Program-made: the position numbers and the translations under genes | Source: Acanthochlamys bracteata | Lineage: Eukaryota; Streptophyta; Magnoliopsida; Pandanales; Velloziaceae | Length of the DNA: 64,000 nucleotides | Assembly: GCA_019914995.1 (NCBI GenBank) | Contig: CM034130.1 | Coordinates: 6,696,001 to 6,760,000, forward strand | Direction: 5' to 3' | Shown: piece after piece, positions 1 to 41,227 of the stretch | Layout: each line of letters starts with the position of its first letter | Numbering within the stretch: the stretch's first letter is position 1 | Notes under the pieces: model-generated | Database searches by the model: none | Told to the model about the DNA's origin: nothing | The model's input: only the letters and a program-made list of their open reading frames with translations

Positions 1-1189
1 TGTTTTTCATCTGGAGCATTGACAACTTGAAATTTTCAACATGCAATACTTCCTCCTGCTTCTCTCTTGCATTAGTTGTTTTTAGATCCAAATGCTACGC
101 TTTTTGAGCTGTGAATCTGAATTTTACAAGAGATATCACAAATTTCATGACAAGTGTGACTTGTTAAAGCCCAAGATTCAGCTCTAGCCATTGGCGCATG
201 CATAGATATTCTAAACACTAGCAACCTGTGTCTTCTGTTGTGTTTATGGTGTTGGCATGCTAGCAACGCTCTGTTGGTTTCAATTGGCCAGATTTCTTGT
301 TTGCAGTAAGTTCTTGATCTGTGAAGGAAACTGTTTCAAAACAGTAAATCAGTTGTTTAAACCAATTTGTTGATCTGGAAGTGATGCATCTGGGGCGACT
401 GCTCTGTCAAATTCATGGACGCATGTTGATTACATCATGAACCAATTTTAAGTGTCTTGTACAAACATTAATTTTCGAAATTTTTGTAAGCTACAACTTT
501 CATACGTTATATGAAGTCATGAGCTATTATATTATTGTTTTAGTTAGTCAGTAGTAATTAATCAAAGGGATTAACACTAGCAGTGATTATTACGTTGGTA
601 TCTGTTTGGGTTGTTTTTTTTTTGAACTTTTGTAGCTTCTGCAGGAAGCTCGGTGTTTTATTTGTTTGATGGCAGCATCAATCCTTATCTAATATATATA
701 TATATATCCAACTGCGATGTGACACGTCTTTATAATAAGCTCGTATAGATTAACCGACGGTTTGGTTTTCCTATTCAAAAATTTCAAAAAATTAAAGCCT
801 TCTCTTGCACAGCTCTTCCACCTCCCTCGTTTCTTTCTGCGTTTTTTCTCTGCTCTCCCTCGCACTCTCGATCTCTTTCTTCAAATTCAAACTAATTCTC
901 ATATAAAATTGGATTCATCTGTTAATTTTGGAAACGGTTTCAAATCGATGAAGAGAAGAGCTCTTCAGGCACTATGAAAGAAGCATGGGAGTAAAGCCAA
1001 CTCTACCAATCTACAGATGGCTGAAAGTCGCCGCTCTCTTTAACGTAACCGGAATACTTCTCTGTTTTTCTCTTTCTGAATTTCATCCTTTGTTTCGAAG
1101 TATCTCTAAAATAAATTGATTCTGGAATGTTCAAGCTCTGGAAACATTTTTTTCTTAATAAGAAAAACTATAAACTTTTTTGCTAATTA
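1..1189. other. Intergenic, no gene recognised
   Basis: Short open frames occur on both strands, but none has recognisable protein similarity or convincing splice sites. A short TA dinucleotide run lies near 692-708. I see no RNA gene here. Confidence 0.5.
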
Positions 1190-2050
1190 TGGAAAGATAC
1201 ATGAAGAAACGAGTGGCGAACAAGGAGTCTGATCCGCTGAATACTCAAAACCCAGTTGGGTGAGAAGGTCGAATCCAATCACTTCCGGCAGGGTATGTCC
1301 CTCCTTTCGAAGCTAACACTTACTGTGTCTAGAAGAGCGGCTAGAAGGAATACCAGGACAAATTACTTTGGTTGGGGCGGGGATGAGCCTGAAGTACCAT
1401 CCTCTGAACTGACAGCTTCAAGCAGTTGGTTTCTGCCTTGCGATTGTAGTGAAGAATCACCGCCAACAGTCCAGGCAGGTTGACCAAGAGTTCCATTCTG
1501 GCACCGGATAACAATAATAGTAATGATATTCGCATCAGGACTCGCTTCAAAGACAGTCTTGGTAAATTATGCCGCAACTGCTTAGGATAGTTTGCATCTG
1601 ATGATCCCATATCAACCTAACAAATGTAGCATTGCGTCCTTCAGCTTATCACAAACCTATATTTTGAATTTGCTTCCTTATATTACTGAACTACTGTTTA
1701 TGACTGGGTTGCAGGTGGTGGTTTGGAAGATTCACCGAGCCTTGAAAATGTGTACTATATTTACAATGCCTTCAAGTGACATGAGATAGCTGTATTCCCT
1801 GAGAAATATGTGAGGAATGAAGATCAACTGTAAAACAATTGTGGTGCCCAAGGTTACTCATCCTTAGTTGAGGAACAATTTGTGCATGGCACATTAAACA
1901 GCAGTGGTTAGTGCTGGTGTCAGAAGTCAAGTACAATCAAGAAGGTGCAGCCTCCAATTTGAAAGTAGCTCTATTACTAGTACAGTTAATTCTTTGAATT
2001 TATCCACATCAAGTGCTAATCCAGGAATCTGGTGGCACAAAAATTTCTCG
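1190..2050 (+). pseudogene. Possible decayed coding remnant, family unknown
   Basis: The stretch has less AT bias than its surroundings and several short open segments on the plus strand, for example at 1256-1483 and 1904-2122. No single frame runs through, and I cannot assign a family. The texture, protein-like composition broken by stops, resembles the decayed helicase fragment at 6.2 kb, so it could be another gene fragment. It could equally be non-coding. Confidence 0.2.
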
Positions 2051-2159
2051 AGGCCGAGTTCCTTAAGTTCACTTCTTCTCTTTTTTCTGTCATGCATATT
2101 AGTTATGTTAAATTTCTTTTGATCCAGATGGAGGGGACGTTTAGAATTGCTTATGAAAT

Positions 2160-2391
2160 GAAACTTTTGAAAAATAAAAATATTTTTATTTTTTTTAAAA
2201 AACGAGCTCTATTTTGTTTACTTCCAAAAAAATAATTAAAATATGCAATAAAAAATCTCACTCCGTAAAATTTTTCTATATTTTCTAAATTTTTAAATAA
2301 ATTATATATATATATATATAATATGTATTAAAAAATATGAAATGATAAAAAATTGAAAAGCAGCTTTTGAAACGCTGCTCCAAACACACTC
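2160..2391 (-). mobile_element. AT-rich MITE-like element, reverse copy
   Basis: About 230 bp of very AT-rich sequence. On the minus strand it begins with a GTGTTTGGAGCAG-like end and continues with the poly-A/poly-T core shared by the other copies listed here. It lies head to head with the next copy (2424-2651), so the pair forms a large imperfect inverted repeat. No coding capacity. Confidence 0.5.
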
Positions 2392-2423
2392 GGAAGCATA
2401 TGGTCGGATAAGATGGATGAGTT

Positions 2424-2651
2424 AGGGTGTGTTTGGAGCGTTTCTCAAACGCTATTTTTTAATTTTTAATTATATATTATTTAATTATATTTTATAAGTA
2501 TTTAAATTTATTTAAAAATTTTACGTAATAAAATTATTTTATTATATATTTTTATTTTTAGATAAAGAAAGTAGAGCTTATTTTAAAAAAAATAAAAATA
2601 TTTTTTAATTTAAAAAAATTCTATTTTATAAGTATTCTCAGACGTCCTCTA
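2424..2651 (+). mobile_element. AT-rich MITE-like element, forward copy
   Basis: Begins with AGGGTGTGTTTGGAGCG and ends in a TTTTATAAGTATTCTCAGACG-like end, with the same AT-rich core as the copies near 4.6, 4.8, 32.7, 40.4, 55.1 and 55.8 kb. The length of about 230 bp, the GTTTGG-type ends and the lack of coding capacity suggest a miniature inverted-repeat element. Confidence 0.5.
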
Positions 2652-3648
2652 AAACGGTATATTTTTGAAATTTAGATATCTAGCACAAAAGAAGGGCAGA
2701 GTAAGAGAAGTATAGGACACCAATGAAGTAGTCGAACGAAGTATGCCGCCGCTTCAGATGGAAGGCAAGGACAAGGAGAACACAGTAGTCCATAAATTGG
2801 AGCACTCTTGCAAGCGCAACTTGGTACAGCCATTCACTGTTAAAAATAAAATCTTCACGGACTGAGTAAATGATATAACTTGAAGAGTGAACAAGGCGAA
2901 GACAGATAGAACAAACGCAGAGGCTGAACAGAAATAAAGAAGAAAATAAGATTGATGTGTATTTCATAACTCTTTGCAATGCTAAATACACTTATTTATA
3001 GTCTTAGTTTTGCTAAGACTTAATACTCTACTATAATGTCCTCTTGTGAGAACAATTATAACTAACTATTAACTCTTGATTACATAAGATTTCCTTAGCT
3101 AACATGAGTCTTAACTAGCTACAACTCTACTGCTTGGCAGACTGCCTTATTAAAGCAAGACTCTTTTGGAGTGAGATTCTATCATTGACTGCCTGGGCAA
3201 TAGATGCAAGTAGCTATTTTTCTTGGCCATCTACGAGGACGTGAGCTGGTGCTAAGGCTTGTATCTGCATTTATATCAGTAAAGCAGTCGGCGAGTCCCA
3301 AAAATCAGTCGGTAAAATATTAGCCAGTACCTCTGCAAGGAAGCCTCTTCAAGCTGTTGATAAGAGCAACACGGCATAGACTGATGAAGAAATCAGCTTT
3401 CGTTTGCCCAAGTTGAAGAAGCACACGATTTTAACAAGAATCATTTGGAACCAAAATTTTATTGTAAAACAATGTAAATTAACAGAGATTCTTCTTGAAA
3501 AACACCATTACACTTTTTGTCCACATCAGTGACGAAGGTAATGCATTTAAGTTTTCTCATATTGGAGAAAACTCACAGGCAATATTGATATCAAGCCTAA
3601 ATTACACCTACCAAGATCATGCTCTAGAAGCATGCAGTGACCTCTTCT
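2652..3648. other. Intergenic, no gene recognised
   Basis: A minus-strand ORF of 103 codons (2680-2991) is rich in Leu, Phe and Ser and resembles no family I know. The composition near 2980-3130, short T- and A-rich words with repeated taact blocks, recalls plant copia LTRs. I could not find paired LTRs or a target duplication, so I do not call an element. Confidence 0.35.
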
Positions 3649-3930
3649 TCAACCTTTAATGTTTGCTTCAATCATCCGAAGATTCACCGGCTCGGTTGCC
3701 TTGTACAAATCAACCAAGTACCTAAACCTTGGTCTTTTCCGCGGCCACTCTCTAGCTTCTTCAAAATTGTCGTTGTTTCTGTTAACTCTCGTATGCTTAT
3801 GATCAGCACCTTTCATGATCGCGCTGTTCGTCTTTCCATGGCTTCTGAACTTACCAATATCGTTGTCTTCTTCTCTAATGATCAACTCTAACAGTTGCTT
3901 CATGTCTGGCTTCACCTTTGCATCTGCCAT
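3649..3930 (-). CDS. Small hypothetical protein (about 93 aa)
   Basis: An ORF starting at the ATG at 3930 reads MADAKVKPDMKQLLELI and ends with a basic and aromatic stretch, PRKRPRFRYLVDLYKATEP. The composition is hydrophilic and charged, rich in Lys, Arg, Asp and Glu, unlike random translation of this AT-rich DNA. The frame also extends upstream to 3972. No domain is recognised, and there is no signal peptide or membrane segment. It could be a small plant-specific nuclear protein or the remaining exon of a larger gene. No neighbouring exons were identified. Confidence 0.35.
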   Translation of the reverse strand: MADAKVKPDMKQLLELIIREEDNDIGKFRSHGKTNSAIMKGADHKHTRVNRNNDNFEEAREWPRKRPRFRYLVDLYKATEPVNLRMIEANIKG

Positions 3931-4298
3931 GCATGTACAAGAAAACTTACACACAGATTGGTATGCTTCCACTACTCTCTCTATTATCTTCTTAATTTGG
4001 TCTGCTTCTGTTTATTGTTTGGTAGCTTGCTTGCTTGCTTGTTTGGTGTTGGTTTACTTGGATTAAGATATAAGTAGGAAAGATGAAACGGTTGGTTTGC
4101 GTATATGCGGATTCAGGTCATTAAAGTAGAAGAAATATCAAAAGTTAGGAAAGAGACCGTGTAGATCGAAAGAGTGAAGAGAGGAAAAAACGGACGCGTT
4201 TTTGGTTTTGGGATAGTTGGAGGGAATTTCAAAGGAAGAGCAGGGAAGGTACTTAAGACATTCATCATGGTCTTGACTGACATGTCTTACTTTTTCCT

Positions 4299-4324
4299 TC
4301 TTTTTTTTTTTTTTTTTTTTTTTT
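4299..4324. repeat. Poly-T tract
   Basis: A homopolymer T run of about 26 bases, broken only at its start. It could be the poly-A tail of a minus-strand retroposon, but no retroposed gene body is visible next to it. Confidence 0.6.
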
Positions 4325-4562
4325 AAAACATTGATACAACGAGATGTTTATTACATAAAATATTACAAAAAATAATAAAACATTATACAGATGGAACAAT
4401 AAAATCATAAATAAAATGCAAAGAATTGATATTCAACAGTATTACATGTGCCAAATGTCTCTCAAGATAATTGCATGCATCAAGTTTAAGCCTTAACTTA
4501 TTATTTCATGAGACAGAGAGAAAAGAGTCAGGGTGAGCTTTTGGTATTTGTGGAACGACTTC

Positions 4563-4752
4563 GGGCTGTTTGACATTCCGTTCTACAAAAATTTTTTATC
4601 AAAATTTTTAAATACTCTAAAAAGTTATTTTTTTTAATATTAAAAAGTTTTATATAATAAATATTTTATTAATTATTTTTATTATTTTTTATAAAAATAG
4701 TAAAATTTATATATTAAAATAAAATAAAAATAATCTCTTCCAAACAGTTTCG
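4563..4752. mobile_element. AT-rich MITE-like element
   Basis: About 190 bp of AT-rich core flanked by GGGCTGTTTGACATTCC at the left and TTCCAAACAGTTTCG at the right. The ends are inverted relative to each other (GCTGTTTG against CAAACAG). The core matches the other copies of this family. Confidence 0.5.
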
Positions 4753-4806
4753 TAGTTCTTACTTCATAGATGATGCTTTTCATAAACGTATCTCACTTAA
4801 GTATTA

Positions 4807-5059
4807 GGAGCGGCACATTTCAAATACTGTTTTGCAATTTTTTTTCATTTTATATTTTTTAATACATTTTTTATAAATATTTAAAAAATTTATTTAAAAA
4901 TTTAAATAGTGTAAAAAAATTTTACATAATGAAAATTTTTTATTACATATTTTTATTATTTTTTAAAATAAAAAAATAGAACTTATTTTTTAAAAAAATA
5001 AAAATATTTTTAATTTTAAAAAAATTTTATTTTATAAGCAATTTTAAACACATCTTAGG
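4807..5059 (+). mobile_element. AT-rich MITE-like element
   Basis: About 250 bp sharing the internal order of words with the 2424, 32697, 40416, 55113 and 55793 copies: the TTTTTTAATA start, TATAAATATTTAAAAAATTT, the TTTTATTACATATTTTTATT block and the final ATTTTATAAG. The ends are degenerate. Confidence 0.45.
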
Positions 5060-6170
5060 TCAATTTTGAATCTTTTGAATAGCCATTAAAAGCAGACTGC
5101 GTTTCCTTGTATTACATTCCCATTTTCTTCTGCTGAATTCTTTCGGGGAAGAACAGCTACTGATTGACTTTGACTATAAGAACACAAACTGGTATCGTCA
5201 CGATTACCATAGAAGTCAAGATGAACTAAACCATATTTGCATTCAGAACTCAATTATATTATTAAATTTTCATAATGTCATCAGTGACCTAATACAGAAC
5301 TCAGCAGTGCTTTAACTACAACAAAAAGAATAATGAGAGAACCAACAAGAACGCATCACCAGACATTGGCCTTTCGAACCAGCTTTCTTCGCGACTGCGT
5401 CGACCTTTTTCTGCAAGATAAAAAAAAAAAAAAAAGATTTAAAGCATAAGGGCCTGTTTGGCAAGCTGTGGTATCCTGAAAATATCATGAAATTTGAAAA
5501 AATACTATAGTACCACAGAACTATGGTAAATTATTCCAGGAGTCCTGTTTGGCACTGTCATGACTGGTAAAAAATTACACAGTTATTAGTGAATACCATA
5601 GTAAAATAAACTGATATGGTATTTTGGTTATGGTGTTCTAACACCACAAAATTTAGGATTGTTCCTTTCCTTTTCTTCAACAGCTTTCTTCATCTTCTCC
5701 ATTCAGACCTCTTCGTTTCACCATATCCATTAATTTCTATTCTCTTCCTGATCATTTTCCATGCCTATCCATCTACTCTCAACATCTATTTATTCATTTC
5801 CTTATCTACATGCTTCTCGATCTTCTTCTGTTTAGAAAACAAAAATTCTCACCAAATGTCAGCTGCGTTCGATATGCAGAGAGATTGAGAGTGCCAGGTT
5901 GAGAATAAGGGGAGTTGGGCAATGCCTGAGACAGAGGGACTCCTTCCAATTATGCTCCTAGGACCAATGCCCATAATCACAAAAAATTGAACAAGATTTA
6001 CTATTCTGCTTTTCACATTTTAGTTGGACTTTGGTTTGTTATGTTGAAGGTTAACACTTATATAAGTGATCTAACTTGCATTGTCCTTTTCCATAGCGTA
6101 ATCTTGCTTCTTACATTACCACATCTTTACAGGTCCTTCCAAAAAAAATTCTGATTCTAAAATATGCAGG
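5060..6170. other. Intergenic, no gene recognised
   Basis: Near 5341-5415 the minus strand could encode a short Lys/Ala-rich exon (reading KKVDAVAKKAGSKGQ after an AG), but no partner exon was found. At 5451-5630 there is a GGGCCTGTTTGGCAAGC end followed by short imperfect repeats of a TATGGTA-type word. This looks like a fragment of a DNA transposon, but I could not define its other end. Confidence 0.35.
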
Positions 6171-6790
6171 CTGGTGATCCAGTTCAACTGCCAGCTACGG
6201 TAATTTCTCCAACAGCTGAGAAACGTGGGTATTCGACCTCTATCATATAGAATTTGTGATGTTTTCCTATTTCCATGTCAAATTATGTTGTCGTTTATTT
6301 TCTAGATATGGGATAGTTTGTTCAAAAGATTCCAAGAGGTAGGTTTTCCTGTGTCAAATGCTCAATACAATGTCGCATGCAACCAGAGCTTACTTGCCCC
6401 AAAATCACAGTATGCTATATCTAATGTTTTATATGATAGATCCCTCATGATTGGACTCACTTTGCAACAGTTAAGCATCTTCTCATCAAAGGAATTCTAT
6501 CATGGCTCCTTAGAAAATGTTGACTTGATTGAAAAGCAGGCTAAAAAACCATGGCATACTTACTGCTGCTTTTACCATTATCCTTAGAAAATGTTGACTT
6601 GGTTGGAAGTGTAGAGTCGCAGCGCGTAGGAACTGGTTGATGGGTAAATGAAGATGCTGTTGAATGTAGTAACTATTTTATCACCAGTTAGTAACCCAAT
6701 ATCCTGAGCTGAAATTCAGTTCTCAGTTGCCAAGCATATCCCATATGGACATCAGGTGAAACTTTTCTGAAAGCTTTTTGATGATGCTTT
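6171..6790 (+). pseudogene. Decayed fragment of a SEN1/senataxin-type RNA helicase gene
   Basis: Just after a CAG the plus strand reads AGDPVQLPATVISPTAEKRG, which is motif III and its context in SEN1/Upf1-like superfamily 1 helicases. About 90 bases later it continues SLFKRFQEVGFPV. Further segments, SSKEFYHGSLENVDLIEKQ with PWHTYCCF, and YPELKFSSQLPSISHM, follow in the order found in the helicase C-terminal lobe. They lie in different frames with stops between them (for example after GTG near 6640). Intron-like gaps remain, so this is a genomic fragment rather than a retrocopy. The Walker A region and the end of the gene are absent. Not expected to be functional. Confidence 0.8.
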
Positions 6791-7114
6791 TGGAAGCAAT
6801 CTGAGAAAATGGCACATATAAATACAGTGGATGGGTCCAGGTAGCATTGTTCTGTACTTAATATTTCTTGTTTGCTCACCATTAATGTATACTAAAACCT
6901 GTACGTACTTCTATATTTTCTGTATTTGTGAGTATCATAGAAGTGGGGCTTTATTTTTTTCAGGTAGAGAAAAAGATCCATCTTTTCATGTGTCCACACA
7001 AACAGCATTCGGGGAATTGAATTTGTTGCCGATTTCTGATGGATGAGTGTGGGCATCAGGAGATCAAAACCTTCTATTCTGGGATGTAGCATATACTGCC
7101 CCTACTTATACTTA

Positions 7115-7409
7115 GGGCGTGTTTCAAATGCTCGTAACTGAGTTTCGTGAAAGTGAAAGTAGGAAGTAGATTTTTTAAAATAATGAGTTGGAAGTGGAGT
7201 TCAGTTTTTGTGTTTCAATAGTTTTTGAAAGTGAGTTAAAACTTGAAGGATAGAATTGCATTGGGAGATGCGCAAATAAAAAAGTTGGAACTGGAGTTCT
7301 GCATGTGAGAGTGTAGTTCCGAGTTTCTTATGCAAATGAAACATATGAACCGTTCGAAACTCCAAATCTAGCGGAAGAAAGTGAAATAATGGGCGTTTGA
7401 AACACGCCC
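7115..7409 (+). mobile_element. Tourist-like MITE, copy 1
   Basis: A 295-bp element with a 14-bp terminal inverted repeat: GGGCGTGTTTCAAA at the left and TTTGAAACACGCCC at the right. It is flanked by the 3-bp duplication TTA (7112-7114 and 7410-7412). The TTA duplication and G-rich ends are typical of Tourist-like (PIF/Harbinger) MITEs. Related copies lie at 31930 and 50200. Confidence 0.85.
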
Positions 7410-7412
7410 TTA

Positions 7413-8519
7413 TTAGTAGAGCCATACACTAAAAGGAAGATAGAATCCGAAGATAAATAAACTGTTTTCTTGGTCACCAATGAGTGTTCCTCTCATTTTT
7501 GGTATGAAGTATCATATCCTTACATGCCACCATTCTGGTGAAAGATAGTCACAGGAGTAATCTTGTTGAAAGTGCTAAAGAAAGAAATTGTTACCTTAAT
7601 GGGAGTTTCTTTTCAGTGTTTTGGCTTTAGATATTGAATTTCTTTTGGTTTACTGATATTCTTGTGCAGATTCGGTCTACTTATGATTTTTTCAGTGAAC
7701 TGAATCTGGAGTCTCAGCATTTTATAAACCAGAAACACAATCAAATGAGGAGAAACTTAAGAATATGCAGGAGCAAATGGCAAGCATGGATCATGCATAT
7801 GCGGGTGAAGAATGTGACCAATGGGACATGGATGGACTTTGCCATGGATGCTCATGGTGGGGCTGATGGAGACTAGGAGAGGTTTATCCTAAAATGTTTT
7901 ACTGGCTTCAGGATCTGAGTAACTCATGGTAACAATACAAAAGCTACTTTCTCCGGCTTTGTGGGCAGATATGTCCGCGAAGTCAATGGAATGCATTGAA
8001 CATGCAGGAAGCCCTTTGAAGAACAACCTTGTTGACCAATAGTTCTTCAAAGCACCAGGAAATATCAATCTGTGAGGAAGTCAAGTTGCCAAAATATAGG
8101 AATTAACCAAGTATTCCAATTTTGTTATGCTGTATATAATATCGCATTGTACTTCTTTGTTTTAAGCAATTTGTATGCAACTCTACATTCATAGCTGTTA
8201 GCTGCATCAAATCTTTTTCGAGAAAAGAAATTCTGGCATGTTCAAATTTTACACTATCATAACAAACTTATGATAAAATAGGCTTTCTTGCACTCTGGAG
8301 AAATTGTTAAACATCCAATTTTATAGTACGGGTGGCTCAGAATGCAAGATGTGACCATTTAGCACTAGATGTGAATAGTGCAAGACGTTTTAAAAAATTC
8401 TGTACCAGGCCATTTAGCAGAAAAACTTCCCACTCTTCTATCTAGATACTGAAGCTCTATGTTTCCATCTGGTACTCGCCCTAATAACCAGGTCTTTCTA
8501 AGACAATCTTCTACAACTC
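7413..8519. other. Intergenic; downstream flank of the CesA gene
   Basis: A short plus-strand ORF (7634-7876) and an alternative frame across it have protein-like composition (KNMQEQMASMDHAYAGEEC), suggesting another broken coding fragment. I cannot name the family. The part nearest 8520 is probably the 3' UTR of the minus-strand CesA gene. Confidence 0.35.
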
Positions 8520-11500
8520 TCAGTGAATAATATCATTGCAATCCAAACCGCACACTTCCAGCACAGGTGTTTGATACTTGGCTGCAAACGGGTTCACGCG
8601 TAGCCACAGAAGTGAACAAACTGATGCAATCAGTATAGACCAAACCACTATAATGGTAGGAACTCTACTCTTGTTACTCAGCACTCTTAAGACTGGATAC
8701 AGGTGAATGATAACCAAGAAGGCAAACACTAGTTTGGCAAGAACAGTTCCTCCTGACTGGAACCCATTGTTGATAGCTTCACATACGCCTATGATTATAG
8801 CAACACTTAGCATTGCTAGCAGCGTTAGAGGAGGTACGAACAATGAACTCCACTTAGAGATAGTTTTACTACCATTTTTTTCTTGGAAATTAGGATTTAT
8901 TCCTGCTATGACTTTGAGGATTCCTTGAAAGAAAGCGAAAAGATTCGATGAGACGCTGGTGATAACCCAGAACTGCTCGTTCTTCCAACAGTCAGCCATG
9001 CTTACGTTGCCCCATTGCATTTCAAGAACACCAGTTATAGCAATGCAGAAGAAAAGAGCCATGTATACTAAGCTCCCACGGTTGCTAATCTGTAGCCAAA
9101 TGAACTGTCAGGTTTGGATTCTTGAAGAAAACGTACACTGGCATTACAAACATTTAACATTGTTTTGAAAGAACAGATTATAGGCAAAATGTATACCTCA
9201 AGGATGATAAAAGTTCCAGTAAGTAGGCAGAAAGCTGGCAACGTACAATAAACAGTCAAGAAAATTGATGTCCAAGGATAGATGACTGCATTCACATAGA
9301 AAAGGCGTTGCAAGTGCTTCAATCCATTTCCATAGTCGTACCAGATTGGACAATGACTGCAAAAGAAAATCTCAACTGATCCAAAAGCCCGTTGTAGATT
9401 TTGATGCAGGCAGTCTGTTAAGTTAGTAAAGATCGATTCTTTGAATGCTGGTCTTTTAGGCATGCAGTAGACAGACCGCCAACCGCGACAATGCATTTTG
9501 AAACCAGTCAAGATAGCCTCAGTAATAGATCCATATGTCCAACCAACCTGTCATTTCAATTTCATAAGTTGTACTGGATCATATCTTTGCCATGAAATAT
9601 GAAAAAGAACTCTGCCTGCTTACCTCTTTTCCCCACTGAGTTTTGTTTTCATATGCGCAGCTAACTACATGTAACGCTTCACCAATACATAAATCTGGAT
9701 TGCCATCATGAACAATTCCTCCACTATCAAGGAACGTGGAGTCTATAAAAACAGATGAATACCCAAATTTCTTTGCAAGATTGTTCTTCACTGTTGTTGA
9801 TGATTCTCCATTCAGCAATCCTAGAAGCAAACATAAGGGGGAAAAAAAAGCAAATTGCATGAGCCCATAATAATCAAAATTAAACTTAAGACAGTCATTA
9901 ACAAGTTCCATACTCACCTTGGTCTTCTTCTTGGATGGTCTCTAGAATGTGCACTTCATCAAATAATTTGGAGGTCTTTAATTTCTTCTTCTTCTTGTCC
10001 TTCTGCCTGCTAACCTTTCTGTTTCTTCTTCTACGCCGGCATAGAAAGCAGAACCATGTTGGCCAACAGTTGCAGGTCATCGAAGGAGTCTTCTTAGTTA
10101 GAGGAGCATCAAATCCATAAATAGCTCGTCTTCTGAAAACACATCCTGCGCCAACACATATTGGTCCCTGGATTCCATCAAGGCCTTTCATATCAACCTG
10201 TTTGCAATGGAAAAAAAATTGTCAACAAACTCCAACAGAAAGCAAAAGAATGATACCATCAACACTACGGAGCAGATTGAGTATTTCACTCACATCTAAG
10301 AAAACTGCATTATGATTTGAGTATCCACCATGAGTATTGATCCCATAAAGCCTCTGAGGAAACTGTACATAAGCAATTTTTGTTCCTGATATAGGGTCCA
10401 TCAGAAAGCACATTGCTTCATAGAGTGCTTTGCTGTTGTTTATATATTGGTCACAGTCTAGATTCAAGATATAAGGAGCATTAGAGAGAACTGCTGAAAC
10501 GCGAAGCTGCAATTAAAGTTTAGAAAGAAAAGGAAGTCACAAAACTAGGTGAAAATAGAAAATATCAGAGAAGCATTTTAGCAGAAAGATGACCAGGGCA
10601 TTCAAAGCTCCAGCTTTGCCGTGGTGACCGAATCCTGTCTTTTTCTCACGAGAAACATAAACTAGCATAGGCAGTCTCGTTCCTTCTTCATCTACTGAGT
10701 TTGAGCCACCTATAAGGACCTATATGAACATTACCAATATTCAGTTTTCAAGAAAATGTTATACATACTTAAAGCAATGTAGGGAGATCAATCGTTGAAC
10801 CTTGTCAGAATGCATACAAATGAAAAAAATTTAGAGTTTTCAGACTTCAGAGCGTATGAATAATTCCGATTATAATGTAATTTGAAATGGGCTATGAACA
10901 AGTAATGACAAGGAAGAAAATTTCTTGCAGGCAAAATGACTCACCTGAATCATTCCTGGATGATTAAACGCATCATTTCCAGGCCATGGAGATCCATCCT
11001 GCAAAGTCCAGACTTCTTCAGGATTCTTTTCTGCTTTGAAGACCAAACTATTGATATGAACTTTAAATTCCTCATAGTCCTTCTGCATAGAACATTTTGT
11101 TACATATGCCATCTTACCAAACTTAAGCATATGAAAAATTTTATAGAAGATAGAGAACCTTCATTTGCCGCCGTTTTCTCACAAAATCAGGATCAACTTT
11201 GTCTTTGAGGTAATCAATTTTCTGACTGAAGTAGCATTCAGGTGCACGAGGTTCGATATTGAACCTTTTGCAGAATGGAACCCACTTCTTGGCAAATTCA
11301 GAAGTTTGAGACAGTACTTCAAATGTGAGCATGGAAGCACCATCATCAGAGACATAGCATGAAACTTTATTTGCAGGATAATCAACAGAAAGAACGGACA
11401 GAACTGTATTAGCCGTTATAAGAGGAGGCTGCAGTCGTGGACCAACTGTTGTAACAAAGATGTCAATAGCAGCTAGCGTAGAACAATTCTCTTCATTGCC

Positions 11501-12994
11501 ATGCCTGAAAGTAAATTTCTAAAAGTGATACTACGACAAAGAACAGATATGAGAAGCAGCGATATGCATGAAAAGAAATTTGAGGGACCTTAGCAGAAGT
11601 CGATCCAGGTACGTTTCACGCTCAACTGGTTTCCACTTTGGTAATTGTCCCATTACCCATGAGACTGAAAACCACATCTCGCATACAACTGCTATTAGCC
11701 AAAGGCTATAAGCATCTGGAATTGGATTCAGTAGTCTATAATGGAAGTAGAAACCGAGAATAACAATCCTCAAAACAATTAGTATCCGGTATGGGTTTAT
11801 TTTGCTGGAACGAATGGACAGCTTCCTCGACAATGGCTGTCTTGCTTTAATGGTCCTACAATATTTGTGTCACCTAAAATCCGTTAATGTGAAACTTGCA
11901 GAATATAGAATGTCGGTGATGCTAATAATGTATAATTTCTTGAAACCAAGAGGGGTTTCACTTACATGGGACAATCCAGACAGTCACCATCGCCGCTTTC
12001 AATTTTAAGTTTGATCTTCTCCGTATTTACTCTCCTGTTAAATGCAATGCTTCCATTACCATATAGAATCAGGTCCCTTTTGCTATCTGATAGTTTTGAC
12101 ACTGACATTTAACCAAAATAGCAAAAGCGATTACGTAAATGAATCAGTAAGATAGATTGACATTAGAATTCTAGATAAACAACTTACTGTCTTCAAGTTG
12201 TTCTGAAGGAGAAATTGATCGAATTCCACCTTGATAACCAATAAATGGATAAGTAATGATTGCACGACTATCAGAAACACTATCAGCAACCTGAAGATAG
12301 GAAATCCAAGAACTTGAAACCTTCTCAACTACGAGGAATTATTATGCATTGAAGGTAAAAAAAGGTTACCTCTTCGATAATTGAAGTATATGGAATTTCT
12401 GAACAAGTATCAGAATCAGAAAGCTGGCAAGCAAATTTAAAATCAACATTTCCTACTCCATTACATTTATCCAAATTGAATTCTTTCACAAGATCATCAA
12501 CACTTTCCTCTTCAGCATCACCCTCTACTCTGGCACTACCTACAAATTTCATTCCAGTAACAAATACTAAGTTGTTTGACACAAACAACGGTTATTTAAT
12601 TCAATCATCTTAGAAGTTGCAGTGAAGTAATGACACCTGGGTGGCGCTTGTATCGGGTTTTGCATTGAGGGCAGCATTGGTTTCCTTCCTTTCTCTCATA
12701 TTCATAGCAGGGTCTGCAAACTGGGTAGGCACACTCATCACAGGCAACGAAGATTTCATTCTCCCCATCTCCCTTTGCGATTATCTCAATACCGTCTCCG
12801 CATATGCGGCATACTTGTGTGTCCAACTCTGTCGATGTTTTCTCCTGAAGTGTTTTTGCAGAATATATCAGTAATGCTAGAAGCCATGATCAAGACAAGC
12901 TCAAGGTTTTGAAACATACCTGTTTGTACTCCTCGGCTTTGATGACTATGAAGGCGCTCCGTGAGCCAGCAACAAGCACCCGCCCCGCTTCCAT
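8520..12994 (-). CDS. Cellulose synthase catalytic subunit (CesA), CesA6-like, with altered catalytic motifs
   Basis: CesA proteins are plasma-membrane GT2 enzymes that polymerise UDP-glucose into cellulose within rosette complexes. Fourteen exons join in frame to 1,054 codons (family about 1,080): 12994-12920, 12844-12637, 12539-12370, 12290-12188, 12086-11966, 11855-11589, 11504-11159, 11082-10945, 10719-10594, 10506-10294, 10197-9918, 9820-9624, 9547-9197 and 9089-8520. The start [13 protein letters not shown] resembles CesA6-clade N-termini. The RING-type zinc finger (about residues 37-85, CRICGDG to CPQC) is intact, as are SDDG (about 367-370) and DCD (about 535-537). The catalytic TED is TEA (about 757-759), QxxRW is QNLQR (about 797-801), TVDP is TVGP, DQFPKW is GQLPKW, and FxVTxK is lost. 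The C-terminus ends [11 protein letters not shown], close to the usual CGLDC. Family assignment is certain; enzymatic activity is doubtful. Confidence 0.93.
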
Positions 12995-16374: not shown

Positions 16375-16752
16375 TGTTACGATCCGTGATTCCAGAAACT
16401 GTGAAGCTATTTTAATAATAGATAAATTAAAATATTAAAGATAAAATTAAAATAAAATAATCAATTTAAATTTTTTTTTTCTTCTTTAATAAGTACAAAT
16501 ACTTTTATTTATAATTAGAGCTCTTCTTTTGTGAGTGAAGTCTTATCTCTATTATAATTTTACTAAAATTAGGACTTCAATCTAACTTGAACACTAACAC
16601 TAATCTCCTAATAAAATTCATATATTTCTAAATTCTAATAAGATTCAAACTCTAAATTCTTTTAATACAACTATGGATTTCGGTAAGACAATCTGCAGCC
16701 CATATTCTTTGCATCTGGCCCAAATCCTTCTCCTCAATCACATACCGTAAGA
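16375..16752 (-). repeat. 3' LTR (left LTR) of the retrotransposon
   Basis: A direct repeat of 19859-20235. It starts TGTTACGATCCGTG and ends ACCGTAAGA, a mutated form of the ACCGTAACA end in the other copy. Where the copies differ, this one mostly has T or A where the other has C or G. Confidence 0.88.
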
Positions 16753-17562
16753 TTCTACTCTCGAAAACTAACCTTGTTCTTAAGGTTGACGGTAATTGTT
16801 GCTTAGGAAATCTAACTAGGTTAGCAGTTGAAGTAACTAACCCAAAGCACATGGGACGAAAAAATCTACTACGGAACTCCAATAAAAAGTTTTTACCGCC
16901 AATGTCATCACCTTGTAAACCGAAGAACAAAACCCTTAGTGATGTATTTCTGGAAGCTAGGAAAAGGGACTTGGAGCAGCTGAATGTGTTGACTGATAAG
17001 ACATGTGGTAGCAATGAATGGTATAGTGAAGCAAACGTAATGCCTACTTCCTCTTGGAACTCTTGCATCAAAAGCATGGCGCAAATTTTCTTGCTGTTTT
17101 TCTTAGAAAACATCCGGATGAAGACTTTCAATAATAGAAGAGCATACCTAAGTCCCTCAGCTGACCAACCAGTAAGGAAAATTTCCTCTGCATTGGTGAA
17201 TGCATGCTGTTCAAAAATTTTAATTTTGCATTTACTTGCTAGAGGATGGTCACCAAGACGTTGAGCCCCTTCTACTGTAGCTTGTGGTGCAGCAGGTCAA
17301 AAACAACCGCAACAAGCACTAATTCCATGGACCTTTTTCTTTATTGTCTTCTGAAAGTTATGCTCCGTCCACTGAAGGTGGTCAAGTGCCTCAAAAACTA
17401 TTTCTTTGGCTGTACAGACAGTGATGACACAATCTCTGTCCACCATTCTTCTGGCCTCTAAGGCTTCAACCTTGCAACAATTATCAATCAAGGGATCCCT
17501 TACTTGGACATTGTAGGCAGGACGAGGACGACTACATCCACCATACATAACAAGTAAAGTTG

Positions 17563-19134
17563 CTACAAGAAACTCTGGGTAGAAAGAATTCTTAAGAGCG
17601 AGTGAATGAAGCTGTTTACGATCTTGAAAACTAATGCGGCTGCCCTCCTTACTGATGCATCCAAGTATGTGCTAGTGAACGTCAACAATGAAGTTCCTTT
17701 TCCAAATTTCCGGTTCACTATCCTTTCTCCGTTATATATGGTAGAAACTGATTTAAAACATAACAAGGTGACTAAAGGTAATACCTGCTCGGTGTTGAAG
17801 TCATTCTCATAGAGCAACAGGTAGAGCATGTGACCAATGGGCTGCGTTATAGCAATCACAACTACAACTTTGTGCTTCAAAACCCCATAAGGAAGTACCT
17901 TGCTGTTTAAGATGTCAAGCACTTCAAGTCCTTGGGTGATCTTCTGAAGGAAAGTGGACTCTGAACCACAGAGTTGATTGCCCAAGAAGGTCCAGAGTTT
18001 TGTCTTGCGGTGGGTGAGTCGAGATGTAAAGGTGAGCTGCTCTCCTGGATCAACTGAAAACAAGTAGGCTACAGGAGCGTAGTACGACAAGCAAAAACTA
18101 TGTTGATCGAAAAACTTCTTCTGAAATTCAGGATCAATAGCGAGGGAATTGAATGCATCTTCAAGCTCGACGAACGTGGGCGCAGACCTGTTCCCAAACC
18201 ATCCAAGCAATTTAAGTTGCTCACCTCGTTCCTTTACATCCATCGTAGTCTCCTTCGCCAGAGCGCATGAATCAGTCGACTGCACATGGTGTTGAAGAGC
18301 AGTGACATTCTGCTCTCCAGGATCTATTGCGAACCAGGATACGGTCGGCGTGCGATTTCGGGGTCCGAATCTATGCCGATCGAGGGTCCGTGGGTCAAGT
18401 CGTCTCAATTTTTCATTGCACGCAGGCAAAAATTTTGAGCTTTTGTTGGCAAAACCTGAGAGCTTGTTCCAACGTGAGAGAGCAAGGTCGTCGTGAGGGG
18501 TGGAGCTCTTTGAGATCGCCGGAATTAAAATCGGTTCCGGACGTGCAAACTCGGAGTTCGTCGGAGAAATCCCGTGAAGTCCTTTCTCCTTAGGTTGTTC
18601 CGTTGAAATTCTCTTAGAGATCGAGTTGGCGTGCTCAATTTCTTTGGGCTTCACTGAAGGTTCAGGTTCGATGCGCGACGACGGTGCTGGCAGTTTGGAG
18701 GCTTCGAATCCAAGATCTTCCGAAGCTATGCCAGCTCGTTGCATCCCAAAAATAAGTTCGGTGAGTTGGTTGAGTTTCTCCGTCAAGGTGTCTAGCCGCT
18801 CTAACGAGCTAAACTTTCTTAATGGCGGTGATGCTTTGGATTCGGTGGTGATGGCGGCAAAGGCTTGGGTTGGGGAAGGAAGGTTACATGGAGGGGGCGA
18901 AGAAGAAAAAAGCGTTACTGGTGAAGGAAAGATGTTTACAAGTGTTTCGGTTGTAGCCGTGCGGGTGGTAAGGCACGGCTGTGTACGGAAATTATGAGTA
19001 AGATTGCTGGGGTATGATTGGAAGGAGTTAAAAGTTGGTGTATGGTACGCTCTAGGTGCAGGTATAGAATAATAATGCTGTTCTTGCTGGTCTAACTGTC
19101 GGTGAATTTGGCGTGAATCATGATGCTGTAGCAT
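17563..19134 (-). CDS. Long ORF inside the LTR element, unknown product (523 aa)
   Basis: A 523-codon frame in the transcribed orientation of the element. The N-terminal third is rich in Ser, Pro, Thr and Gln. A leucine-rich segment (RLDTLTEKLNQLTELIFGMQ, about residues 110-130) could be helical. A central acidic and basic region follows, and then a hydrophobic stretch near 405-430 (KVVVVIAITQPIGHMLYLLL). The motif DPGEQ occurs twice (about 270 and 365). No zinc knuckle, protease or polymerase motif is visible. It may be a diverged gag-like protein or a captured host sequence; I cannot tell which. The last part, after ENDFNTEQ, may be intronic in origin. Confidence 0.4.
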   Translation of the reverse strand: MLQHHDSRQIHRQLDQQEQHYYSIPAPRAYHTPTFNSFQSYPSNLTHNFRTQPCLTTRTATTETLVNIFPSPVTLFSSSPPPCNLPSPTQAFAAITTESKASPPLRKFSSLERLDTLTEKLNQLTELIFGMQRAGIASEDLGFEASKLPAPSSRIEPEPSVKPKEIEHANSISKRISTEQPKEKGLHGISPTNSEFARPEPILIPAISKSSTPHDDLALSRWNKLSGFANKSSKFLPACNEKLRRLDPRTLDRHRFGPRNRTPTVSWFAIDPGEQNVTALQHHVQSTDSCALAKETTMDVKERGEQLKLLGWFGNRSAPTFVELEDAFNSLAIDPEFQKKFFDQHSFCLSYYAPVAYLFSVDPGEQLTFTSRLTHRKTKLWTFLGNQLCGSESTFLQKITQGLEVLDILNSKVLPYGVLKHKVVVVIAITQPIGHMLYLLLYENDFNTEQVLPLVTLLCFKSVSTIYNGERIVNRKFGKGTSLLTFTSTYLDASVRRAAALVFKIVNSFIHSLLRILSTQSFL

Positions 19135-19197
19135 TATGGGTAAGCATCATAATTATGATATTGCAGATGATGCACATAGTGTTGATAGGATTGCTGG

Positions 19198-19366
19198 CAA
19201 GAATCAAATAGACAGGTTGCTGAAGGGATAAGAATTGGTGTAGAATTATTTGTAAGGACAGACAATTAGGCATAATTGTAGGAAGAATCATATAGGCAGA
19301 TTGCTGAAGGGATAGAGGCTGGTGTAGAATTATTTGTATGGACAGGACAATTAGGTATAATTGTAG
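19198..19366. repeat. Two-unit tandem repeat inside the LTR element
   Basis: Two units of about 84 bp (19198-19281 and 19282-19366) share GAAGAATCA-, TTGCTGAAGGGATA-, GGTGTAGAATTATTTGTA- and AATTAGGNATAATTGTA-type blocks. They lie between the primer-binding site and the long ORF. Confidence 0.7.
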
Positions 19367-19735
19367 AAATATTAGGGTGTTGCTCTATGGGTGTGGTGAA
19401 ATATTAGGATAGGTAAGGCTTATGTTATAAGAAGTATTATGATATAAAGTGTTTTGATAGATAAAGCTGGTGTTATAATAAGAACGATCATTATAAAGAA
19501 ATGGCGGCGGAGAATGAGGATATCTGTCGGGTTCCGGTATTGAAACTGAATATTGTTCGTGCGGCGGCGGCGGTGCTGACCATTGCTGGTGCTGAGCAGA
19601 TGATGGATAGAAATTATGGTTGTATTGTATATGCTCTTCAGGTGGAGGATATTGTTGCCGAAAATTTTGATCTTCTAATTGTCGTTGGCGTGATTGCTCA
19701 GAAGTTGAAATTGTTGGAGATTTTGGTAAAAACCA

Positions 19736-19834
19736 CTAGTAACTAGCCTTTATGATTGTTTGATAATGATCTGTCATAGGATGGTCTTGCAAATAAGGGT
19801 CAAGATATGGATCAACAGAAGCCGAATTCGTCAT
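19736..19834 (-). pseudogene. Start of a gag-like frame of the LTR element, interrupted
   Basis: The first ATG downstream of the primer-binding site (19834) opens a frame of 32 codons, beginning MTNSASVDPYLDPYLQDH, that ends at TAG (19738-19736). After this stop the same frame continues for many codons with Gln-, Pro- and Tyr-rich sequence (for example QQYPPPEEHIQYNHNFYPSS). This suggests an originally longer gag-like N-terminus that now has a stop and later frameshifts. Confidence 0.45.
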
Positions 19835-19844
19835 AAAATCGATC

Positions 19845-19856
19845 GCTCTGATACCA
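19845..19856 (-). promoter_or_regulatory. Primer-binding site for initiator tRNA-Met
   Basis: On the minus strand it reads TGGTATCAGAGC, two bases inside the LTR end. This is the complement of the 3' end of plant initiator methionine tRNA and the standard minus-strand primer site of many plant LTR elements. Confidence 0.9.
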
Positions 19857-19858
19857 AT

Positions 19859-20235
19859 TGTTACGATTCGTGATCACACGAACCGTGAAGCTATTCTAAT
19901 GCTAGATAAACTAAAGAACTAAAGATAAAACTAAAATAAAATAACTAATTCAATTCTTCTTTCTCTTCTTTAACGAGTACAAGCACTTTTATTTATAACT
20001 AAAACTCTTCTTTTGTGAGTGAAGCTCTAGCTCTATTACAACTCTACTAAAGTTAGGATTTCAAACTAACTTGAATACTAACACTAGTCTCTTAATAAAA
20101 CTCATCTACTCCTAAATTCTAATGAGATTCAAACTCTAAACTCTTTCAATACAACCATAGGCCTCGGTAAAATAACATGCAGCTCATGTCTCTTGCATCC
20201 GGCCAAGTCCTTCTCCTCAATCACATACCGTAACA
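19859..20235 (-). repeat. 5' LTR (right LTR) of the retrotransposon
   Basis: Direct repeat of 16375-16752, with intact TGTTACG and CGTAACA ends. It lies next to the primer-binding site, so it is the 5' LTR of this minus-strand element and should hold the promoter. Confidence 0.88.
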
Positions 20236-28390: not shown

Positions 28391-28797
28391 CCTGAGAACC
28401 AAACGTACTTCGCCAAATTCTTTTTGGCCTTTTACGATAAAGTAATCAAATTCTCTGTTCCTCAAACTAATGGCTTTTTTTTATACCTGCCCTTTTTCCA
28501 AAAACGATTCTCAAATCTTAGTTCAGTTAATTTTCCTTTATATTTCTTTAATCCTACCGGCCCGCTCAACCAATCCACCACTCTGCTGACTGGAGAAGGA
28601 GGAAGAAAAGAACGACAAACTGTTTGAATATTCAACTTCTCGGGCAGGCGACGACGAAGACCAGATTTGATTGAAGAATGAAATACCAAACACCACCAAA
28701 AATATTAAAGAAAAAACTATCTCTGTCAAATGCGCGCCCTTCTCTCTGTTCTCTCTTTCTCTATCTTCACCGGATTTGTACTCCAACAACAACGACG

Positions 28798-30115
28798 ATG
28801 GAAGCTGCTTTGCAAGCCTTAATCGCTGCCGGCGCAAGTTTCTTCTTCGTCGCTTTTATTCTCTCTTCTCTTCTTCTTCTCTGCCGCCGCTACTCCAATA
28901 ACTACAACAACAACAACAATTTTTCTCAACAAGAATCTAACTACAACAACAACAAGCAGAAACCTTCACCGTCGTTGCCGCCGCAGATAGCAATTGCGGA
29001 TGAAAGCTTCTCATTCGATCCAGTATCGCTACCGCACATATCGATCTCAGAACTCTCCGCCGCCACCAAAGGGTTTTCGCCCGACGCAATTGTCGGCGAC
29101 GGCGCGTTCGGGTTCGTTTACCGGGCTCACTTGTCCTCCGGCGCTGACGTGGCAGTTAAGCGACTCAGCGCTGATGCTTTCCACGGGCTGAGAGAGTTCC
29201 GCGCAGAGATGGAAACGTTGGGCCGGATTAAGCACCAGAACCTGGCCCGGTTGTTGGGTTACTGCGCTGCTGGGCCGGACCGGTTGTTAATCTATGAGTT
29301 TCTAGACCGGGGGAGTCTGGACCTTTGGTTGCATCCTGAACCAGGTGAGGCCGAACGTGGACCAGACCGCCTTAGTTGGTCTACGAGGTTGAAGATTGTT
29401 AAAGATGTTGCTGCCGGGTTGAAGTTTTTGCATGATGATTGCAAGCCTAAGATTATACACAGGGATATTAAGTCTTCTAATGTTTTGCTGGATTCCGATT
29501 TCGGAGCTAGGATAGCCGATTTCGGACTTGCGCGGTCGATGGACTCGATGCGGTAATGGAATTTGTTCATACTTCTTTCAAGTCTATATACGTACGAAAG
29601 AGCTTAATTGTACTTTCAACATAAATGCACTGCTGTATGGTCGTTGAAGTTTTTGTGAGAGGTAAACATGCATGCAAAACTAGCTCAAAAATTTTGAAGA
29701 ATTATTCATGGGCTTGCGTACGTGCAGGTCACATGTATCGACGCAAACTGCAGGAACGATGGGATACATGCCGCCAGAGTACAGGGACGGATGGACTGCA
29801 GCGACAGCAGCTGCTGACGTGTACAGTTTCGGAGCTTTGATGATTGAAGTGGCAACTGGGCTCAGACCAAGCTGGCCAGTACGATTGCCCGACGGCGTCG
29901 AGACAAGCTTAGTCAGGTGGGCTAGAGCAATGATAGACCACGACCGGACAATGGAGATCGTCGACCGTGGACTAACGACAAAAGGACGGTTGCATGAAGA
30001 GGAGCAAGAGAAGGAAATGAAGGGTTTCTTTGCAATCGCGTACAGGTGCACAGAAGACGGAGCGCGGAAGAGGCCGTCCATGGCTGAGGTAGTCATGCTG
30101 CTCCAAGATCTATAA
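28798..30115 (+). CDS. Receptor-like (cytoplasmic) protein kinase without ectodomain
   Basis: Two exons, 28798-29552 and 29728-30115, join in frame to 380 aa. Residues about 8-30 form one hydrophobic helix, followed by basic residues and an Asn-rich linker. The kinase domain starts near residue 95 with GDGAFGFVY and VAVKRL, followed by [22 protein letters not shown] and DVYSFG. It is an RD-type Ser/Thr kinase and all catalytic residues are present. There is no signal peptide and no LRR, lectin or other extracellular domain, so it would be membrane-anchored and cytosolic, acting with a receptor partner. The kinase resembles the LRR-X group (PSKR/BRI1-like) more than the PERK-like kinase at 56-60 kb. 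An upstream ATG at 28678 is in frame, but the sequence between is low complexity, so I chose 28798. Confidence 0.85.
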
Positions 30116-41212: not shown

Positions 41213-41227
41213 TTGTATTCCTTCATT

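What the first reader, a model, noticed from the sequence alone, without database searches (positions are those of the whole stretch)
9197..9547. Full-length CesA with the catalytic TED and QxxRW motifs destroyed
The CesA frame is intact over 14 exons and 1,054 codons, every junction preserves frame, and the zinc finger, SDDG and DCD are intact. Yet the catalytic-base motif TED reads TEA (GAG GCT at the ITEAILTGF site), and QVLRW reads QNLQR. In bacterial BcsA and plant CesA the TED aspartate is the catalytic base and QxxRW holds the acceptor glucan. Losing both while the frame stays open suggests a pseudoenzyme: a structural or dominant-negative rosette subunit, or a UDP-glucose-sensing partner. 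It could also be a very recent loss with neutral decay.
Basis: partly seen in the sequence, partly recalled or inferred. Interest (0 to 1): 0.88.

Follow-up and report, generated by a model that had tools for sequence, protein, structure and literature searches.

The report
Catalytically dead cellulose synthase kept intact
A plant cellulose synthase gene has lost several residues it would need to make cellulose, yet stayed readable from end to end through a gene-block duplication after which its twin copy fell apart, so the protein may be kept for a job other than making cellulose.

Summary
Observation confirmed. The gene is a 14-exon, 1,054-aa CesA6-type gene on the minus strand (12994-8520) with TEA for TED and QNLQR for QVLRW. 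More is missing: the FxVTxK gating motif after its Phe, two residues of STVDP, the uridine-contacting Glu and the YVGTG Thr. The zinc finger, DDG and DxD remain. A truncated, decayed twin lies in a collinear block on C3, dS 0.353, near three other duplicate pairs (0.26-0.34). It shares QNLQ but has TED. So the QxxRW Arg was lost before the duplication and the TED Asp after it, in a frame that stayed open. Neutrality since then predicts about 10 to 29 stops; there are none. Amino-acid constraint is unsettled: omega 0.35-0.47 with a shared clock, not below 1 without. None of 249 retrieved proteins showed TEA or QNLQ. Best reading: a non-catalytic CesA whose frame selection kept, perhaps as a complex subunit. 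Expression and role are untested. Recent loss with neutral decay is disfavoured, not excluded.

The parts
8520..12994 (-). CesA6-type gene, 14 exons: 12994-12920, 12844-12637, 12539-12370, 12290-12188, 12086-11966, 11855-11589, 11504-11159, 11082-10945, 10719-10594, 10506-10294, 10197-9918, 9820-9624, 9547-9197, 9089-8523; stop TGA 8522-8520
   Evidence: Spliced alignment, all introns GT-AG, 1,054 aa, no stop or frameshift; Pfam PF03552 1014 bits and PF14569 115 bits
12662..12811 (-). RING-type zinc finger, all eight cysteines kept
11438..11452 (-). STVDP motif, reads TTVGP
11339..11350 (-). SDDG motif, intact
10450..10458 (-). DCD (DxD) motif, intact
9515..9523 (-). TED motif, reads TEA (ACT GAG GCT)
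9389..9403 (-). QVLRW motif, reads QNLQR (CAA AAT CTA CAA CGG)
8865..8888 (-). Gating-loop site: FxVTxK is gone after its Phe (reads FQEKNGSK)
   Evidence: Alignment with 181 CesA rows and with poplar CesA8; the motif is also absent in the C3 twin, which has a further gap there
931..10253 (.). Block collinear with contig C3 around 4.558-4.577 Mb, which holds the decayed twin
   Evidence: Nine blastn pieces in the same order and orientation; three further hits at 2139-2653 look like dispersed repeats

Best explanation
This is a CesA6-type paralogue that lost glucan-synthase activity before a duplication of about the same dS as other gene pairs of this genome, and whose full-length reading frame was kept afterwards by selection. 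Shown: the motif losses; which changes the twin shares (QNLQ, YVGTG Thr) and which it does not (TED to TEA); decay of the twin; the open frame. Likely but less sure: the gating motif was also gone before the duplication (absent in both, but the twin has an extra gap there). Inferred from published mutants of homologues: no catalysis, because Arg717 of QxxRW and the FxVTxK loop are needed for full activity in poplar CesA8 and bacterial BcsA. Inferred only: the protein is made and acts as a non-catalytic member or partner of the cellulose synthase complex, since the zinc finger and most of the plant-conserved region are kept while the transfer site, gating loop and parts of the TM5-8 region are not. 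Part of the uridine and metal site remains, so weak nucleotide binding is possible.
For: Motif losses and retained motifs. 70 of 368 invariant positions changed, against 1 of 369, 0 of 368, 11 of 379, 2 of 370 and 4 of 372 in the five of ten other own CesAs tested by leaving one out. Substrate-contact positions are lost more often than other invariant positions: 6 of 13 against 64 of 355, p 0.02, or 7 of 17 against 63 of 351, p 0.03, in a wider set. The C3 twin has the same residue as the window gene at 15 of the 35 changed invariant positions that it covers, among them V798N, R800Q, L803F, T606A, G909T and G910S, and keeps TED. dS window-twin 0.353 against 0.264, 0.327, 0.340 for three other pairs. 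The twin has 5 stops in 374 aligned codons, many indels and no exons 1-10. Expected stops if neutral since the duplication: 28.6 at d 0.176, P(0) 4e-13; 9.8 at d 0.06, P(0) 5.8e-5. Whole-branch omega 0.33 differs from 1 (2dlnL 13.5) and from background 0.05 (66.5). Post-duplication omega 0.35-0.47 with equal dS (2dlnL against 1: 21-48). R717A inactivates CesA8 and its gating-loop mutants are inactive or reduced (PMC10592267, passages read).
Against: Without the equal-dS assumption the post-duplication omega of the window gene is 1.9 or at its upper bound, and the clock is mildly rejected (2dlnL 4.14). The same free model makes the twin look constrained (0.41, 2dlnL against 1: 4.3), which a dead copy should not be. 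Polarised changes give much the same nonsynonymous to synonymous ratio in the window gene (29:6) and the twin (61:14). The lowest dS fitted for the window gene, 0.005, would predict fewer than one stop. Only 360 codons of the twin can be compared. The whole-branch rate is very high (end branch 1.32 against a median of 0.079). No orthologue was found elsewhere, and there is no expression evidence. The published mutant is Arg to Ala; here it is Gln.
Confidence: 0.58

Rival explanations
1. A decaying gene: selection was lost, and by luck no stop or frameshift has yet arisen.
For: Omega is about 6 times background; changed invariants occur in nearly all domains; the free branch model gives no sign of constraint after the duplication; three sibling copies in the genome have decayed (L021, L022, L023).
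Against: 0 stops in 1,054 codons against about 10 to 29 expected if neutral since the duplication; at d 0.176 stops alone limit neutral time to about 10% of that span. The QxxRW Arg was gone before the duplication, so keeping the frame needs another reason than synthesis.
Confidence: 0.27
2. The gene keeps an altered enzymatic activity (for example UDP-glucose hydrolysis or a non-processive transfer) rather than being dead.
For: DDG, DxD, the uridine-contacting Lys and the Val-Gly of YVGTG are kept.
Against: The TED Asp, the diphosphate-contacting Arg, the acceptor Trp and most of the gating motif are gone; R717A or single loop changes abolish or cut activity in CesA8 (PMC10592267).
Confidence: 0.08
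3. Assembly or sequencing error produced the two motif changes.
For: One assembly only; no reads could be examined.
Against: The QxxRW change is shared with a separate copy on C3, and the gene carries 70 changes at invariant sites without one frame break.
Confidence: 0.02

Closest known systems
CESA6-like cellulose synthases of monocots (Phoenix, Canna, Musa, Typha and others)
   Same: Zinc finger, plant-conserved region, class-specific region and overall protein layout; the tree places it in a group of 12 monocot CESA6-like rows (96/98). The own paralogue L009 also has 14 exons of similar size.
   Different: TED, QxxRW and FxVTxK are lost, and the end branch is about 17 times the median length
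Engineered catalytic-site mutants of Arabidopsis CESA4/7/8 (Kumar et al. 2018, as cited in PMC13016765; passage read, original not read)
   Same: A CESA whose catalytic aspartates are changed
   Different: Those are laboratory mutants; this is a natural gene with several losses, at least one of them older than a duplication
Poplar CesA8 R717A and gating-loop mutants (PMC10592267, passages read)
   Same: The same Arg of QxxRW and the same loop are affected
   Different: Single point mutants tested in vitro
C3 decayed copy (L023) in the same genome
   Same: Shares QNLQ and other derived residues, and lacks the gating motif
   Different: Has TED; truncated, with stops and frameshifts

Membership tests
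Plant CesA (by descent) | Cellulose_synt (PF03552) and zf-UDP (PF14569) domains | tested here: met
   PF03552 positions 1-719 of 722, PF14569 3-77 of 78
Plant CesA (by descent) | Falls inside the CESA tree, in the CESA6-like group | tested here: met
   (no Csl rows in that tree); exact sister unsure, joining it to L009 not rejected (p-AU 0.126)
Catalytic cellulose synthase (GT2 D,D,D,QxxRW) | TED Asp and QxxRW | tested here: not met
   TEA and QNLQR
Catalytic cellulose synthase (GT2 D,D,D,QxxRW) | FxVTxK gating loop | tested here: not met
   Gone after its Phe
Catalytic cellulose synthase (GT2 D,D,D,QxxRW) | DDG and DxD aspartates | tested here: met
Pseudoenzyme (selected non-catalytic homologue) | Loss of catalytic residues in an intact reading frame | tested here: met
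Pseudoenzyme (selected non-catalytic homologue) | Selection for the protein after catalysis was lost | tested here: inconclusive
   Open frame improbable under neutrality, but amino-acid constraint depends on the clock assumption
Pseudoenzyme (selected non-catalytic homologue) | Expression and a measured lack of activity | not testable with these tools
   No RNA or protein data
Pseudogene | Stops, frameshifts or truncation | tested here: not met
   None in the window gene

The most novel reading that the evidence does not exclude
A natural, non-catalytic CesA subunit has been kept in a plant lineage across a genome duplication and enters cellulose synthase complexes, changing how many chains a rosette makes or how it is regulated.
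Probability: 0.25. Interest if true: 0.8.

Novelty: new variant of a known kind. Interest (0 to 1): 0.55.

Why it matters
Whether every CesA position in a rosette must be catalytic, and what sets the number of chains in a microfibril, have been approached with engineered dead subunits (Kumar et al. 2018, as cited in PMC13016765). A natural dead CesA kept over a duplication would be a ready-made case. In the held library, 'cellulose synthase' with 'pseudoenzyme' gave one paper, PMC7921929, seen as a listing only. Six phrases such as 'catalytically inactive CESA' gave two papers: PMC13027454, whose passages concern other matters, and PMC10026868, seen as a listing only. Further searches showed no title or abstract start on a natural CESA pseudoenzyme, but I opened few of those papers, and most subscription journals are not held.

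Tried and rejected
Assembly error: rejected because the C3 copy shares QNLQ. Recent loss: disfavoured for QxxRW. Orthologues elsewhere: (window protein) listed ordinary CESAs in their best 120; one search searched with L009 to place the species and to supply relatives. The highest hit, Tetracentron P0002, appears to owe its score to a gene model with a repeated C-terminal half. Domain-wise omega on the window branch was too unstable to use: fitted dS ran from 0.01 to 5.1 and omega from 0.04 to 12. The unconstrained split of dS between window gene and twin gave odd values, so both clock and free results are told. In the exon 12-13 part of the clock model the pre-duplication omega hit its bound. 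Gene models: the models of L012, L013, L014 and L016 contain forced frame breaks, and L013 and L014 one stop each, I think because a CESA6 reference fits their variable parts badly; not checked. Codon comparisons used only columns from window residue 226 on, except the zinc-finger row. Barley CslF, Phytophthora CesA and the CesA superfamily paper were read in passages and those passages describe no natural dead CESA. No structure was predicted: a spliced protein is not given letter for letter by the DNA, and I did not want to probe that rule.

Full report
What is there. The finding lies in exon 13 (9547-9197, minus strand) of a plant CesA gene. The frame reads ITEAILTGF and [11 protein letters not shown]. 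A spliced alignment gives 14 exons with GT-AG introns, 1,054 aa, no frameshift and no stop. Pfam finds the cellulose synthase domain (1014 bits) and the zinc-binding domain (115 bits). The window lies in contig C5 of an unnamed 195.5 Mb genome with 557 contigs.

What is lost and kept. Poplar CesA8 numbering comes from PMC10592267 (passages read) and the alignment. Lost: Asp676 of VTED (A), Arg717 (Q) and Trp718 (R) of QxxRW, Glu265 (Q), Thr531 of YVGTG (A), Ser258 of STVDP (T), the Asp of STVDP (G), and the FxVTxK gating motif after its Phe. Kept: Val260, Asp294 of DDG, Lys436, Asp460 and Asp462, Val529 and Gly530. That paper reports that R717A inactivates CesA8 and that, of the CesA8 loop mutants made, only V853L and T854S keep about 30% activity. 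All eight zinc-finger cysteines are kept. Hydropathy peaks lie in matching regions of L009 and L010.

How unusual. Of 249 retrieved proteins, 237 have TED, 1 AED, 11 unmatched; 237 have QVLRW, 1 QVLQW, 11 unmatched; no match was TEA or QNLQ. These are the best hits listed by three searches, so mostly CESA6-like. Among 181 other rows (10 from this genome, 171 from searches; the exon itself, P0001, and three odd models left out), 368 positions are at least 98.5% uniform and fixed in the genome's own rows; the window gene changes 70. Five of the ten own genes were tested by leaving one out: L009 1 of 369, L010 0 of 368 (its duplicate stayed in the set), L012 11 of 379, L015 2 of 370, L016 4 of 372. 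Substrate-contact positions are lost more often, 6 of 13 against 64 of 355, p 0.02; a wider set gave 7 of 17 against 63 of 351, p 0.03. This is a modest signal, and the sets were drawn up after seeing the gene.

Family position. A tree of 38 rows puts it in a group of 12 monocot CESA6-like rows (96/98) with an end branch of 1.32 against a median of 0.079. The best own match, L009 on C18, is 71% identical in exon 13; making the two sisters is not rejected (p-AU 0.126).

The twin. A fragment on C3 (L023) aligns with exons, introns and flank; nine blastn pieces of window 931-10253 lie in order on C3. It lacks exons 1-10, has 5 stops in 374 aligned codons and many indels. Its dS to the window gene is 0.353, against 0.264, 0.327 and 0.340 for the pairs L010/L011, L017/L018 and L013/L014. 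Two more decayed copies on C1 have dS 0.283 (L022/L015) and 0.541 (L021/L012, 378 codons, rough and higher than the rest) to their partners. I read this as one genome duplication, though whole-genome collinearity was not tested. At TED the twin has ACT GAG GAT; at QxxRW it has CAA AAT CTG CAA CCG, against CAA GTT CTA CGT TGG in L009. Of the 35 changed invariant positions that the twin covers, 28 are also changed in the twin, 15 of them to the same residue. So the Arg was lost before the duplication, the Trp most likely too (R here, P in the twin), and the TED Asp after it, only here. The gating motif is absent in both, but the twin has a further gap of 11 bases there, so its early loss is likely rather than shown.

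Selection. Over the whole branch to the window gene omega is 0.33, background 0.05; it differs from 1 (2dlnL 13.5) and from background (66.5). Before the duplication omega is about 0.23 (2dlnL against 1: 6.7-7.1). After it, with equal dS for the two copies, omega is 0.35 for the window gene (2dlnL against 1: 23.0) and 0.78 for the twin (1.9); with dS fixed at 0.13, 0.155 or 0.176 it is 0.47, 0.39 or 0.35 (at 0.176 the twin too departs from 1, 2dlnL 4.8). Against this, the free model puts nearly all synonymous change on the twin and gives omega of 1.9 or at its upper bound for the window gene and 0.39-0.41 for the twin; it fits better than the clock by 2dlnL 4.14; and changes polarised by L009 and L010 are 29 nonsynonymous to 6 synonymous here and 61 to 14 in the twin, much the same ratio. 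So amino-acid constraint after the duplication is not settled.

The open frame is firmer. Neutral change at d 0.176 would give 28.6 stops in 3,162 coding bases, P(0) 4e-13. Taking the fitted dN of about 0.06 as the neutral distance gives 9.8 stops, P(0) 5.8e-5; with the free model's dS of 0.034 it is 5.5 stops, P(0) 0.004. The other free fit, dS 0.005, would by the same factor give under one stop, but it is some 25 times or more below half the dS of the other pairs. Frame-breaking indels, counted by hand as 11 in 374 codons with their side not known, would add about 31.

Reading. The likeliest account is a CesA that lost synthase activity before the duplication and whose protein was still worth keeping. 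With the zinc finger and most of the plant-conserved region kept (1 of 14 and 4 of 34 invariant positions changed), a place in the cellulose synthase complex is the natural guess; CESA4, 7 and 8 with mutated catalytic aspartates have been studied in Arabidopsis (Kumar et al. 2018, as described in PMC13016765, passage read). That part is inference. The main rival, slow decay, is disfavoured but not excluded.

Noticed in passing
G000 contig C1, loci L022 (C1:7850000-7859900) and L021 (C1:5874000-5883900): Two more CesA copies in this genome look decayed (stops and frame breaks), most similar to copies on C2 (L015 and L012).
   Followed up: partly
window 35238-36445, minus strand: Exons of a cellulose-synthase-like gene about 22 kb away, with VED and QYKRW, so its Asp, Arg and Trp at these sites are kept.
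   Followed up: partly
window 16375-20233: Two direct repeats of about 376 bases, 83% identical, at the ends of a 3.9 kb stretch: probably an old LTR retrotransposon.
   Followed up: no
window 41210-42691, plus strand: Open frame matching the Integrator subunit 3 N-terminal domain (443 bits).
   Followed up: no
window 28675-29553, plus strand: Open frame with a protein kinase domain (PF07714, 104 bits).
   Followed up: no
P0012 (Phoenix dactylifera CESA5-like): Reads QVLQW instead of QVLRW, with TED and FTVTSK intact; another possible natural change at the QxxRW arginine.
   Followed up: no
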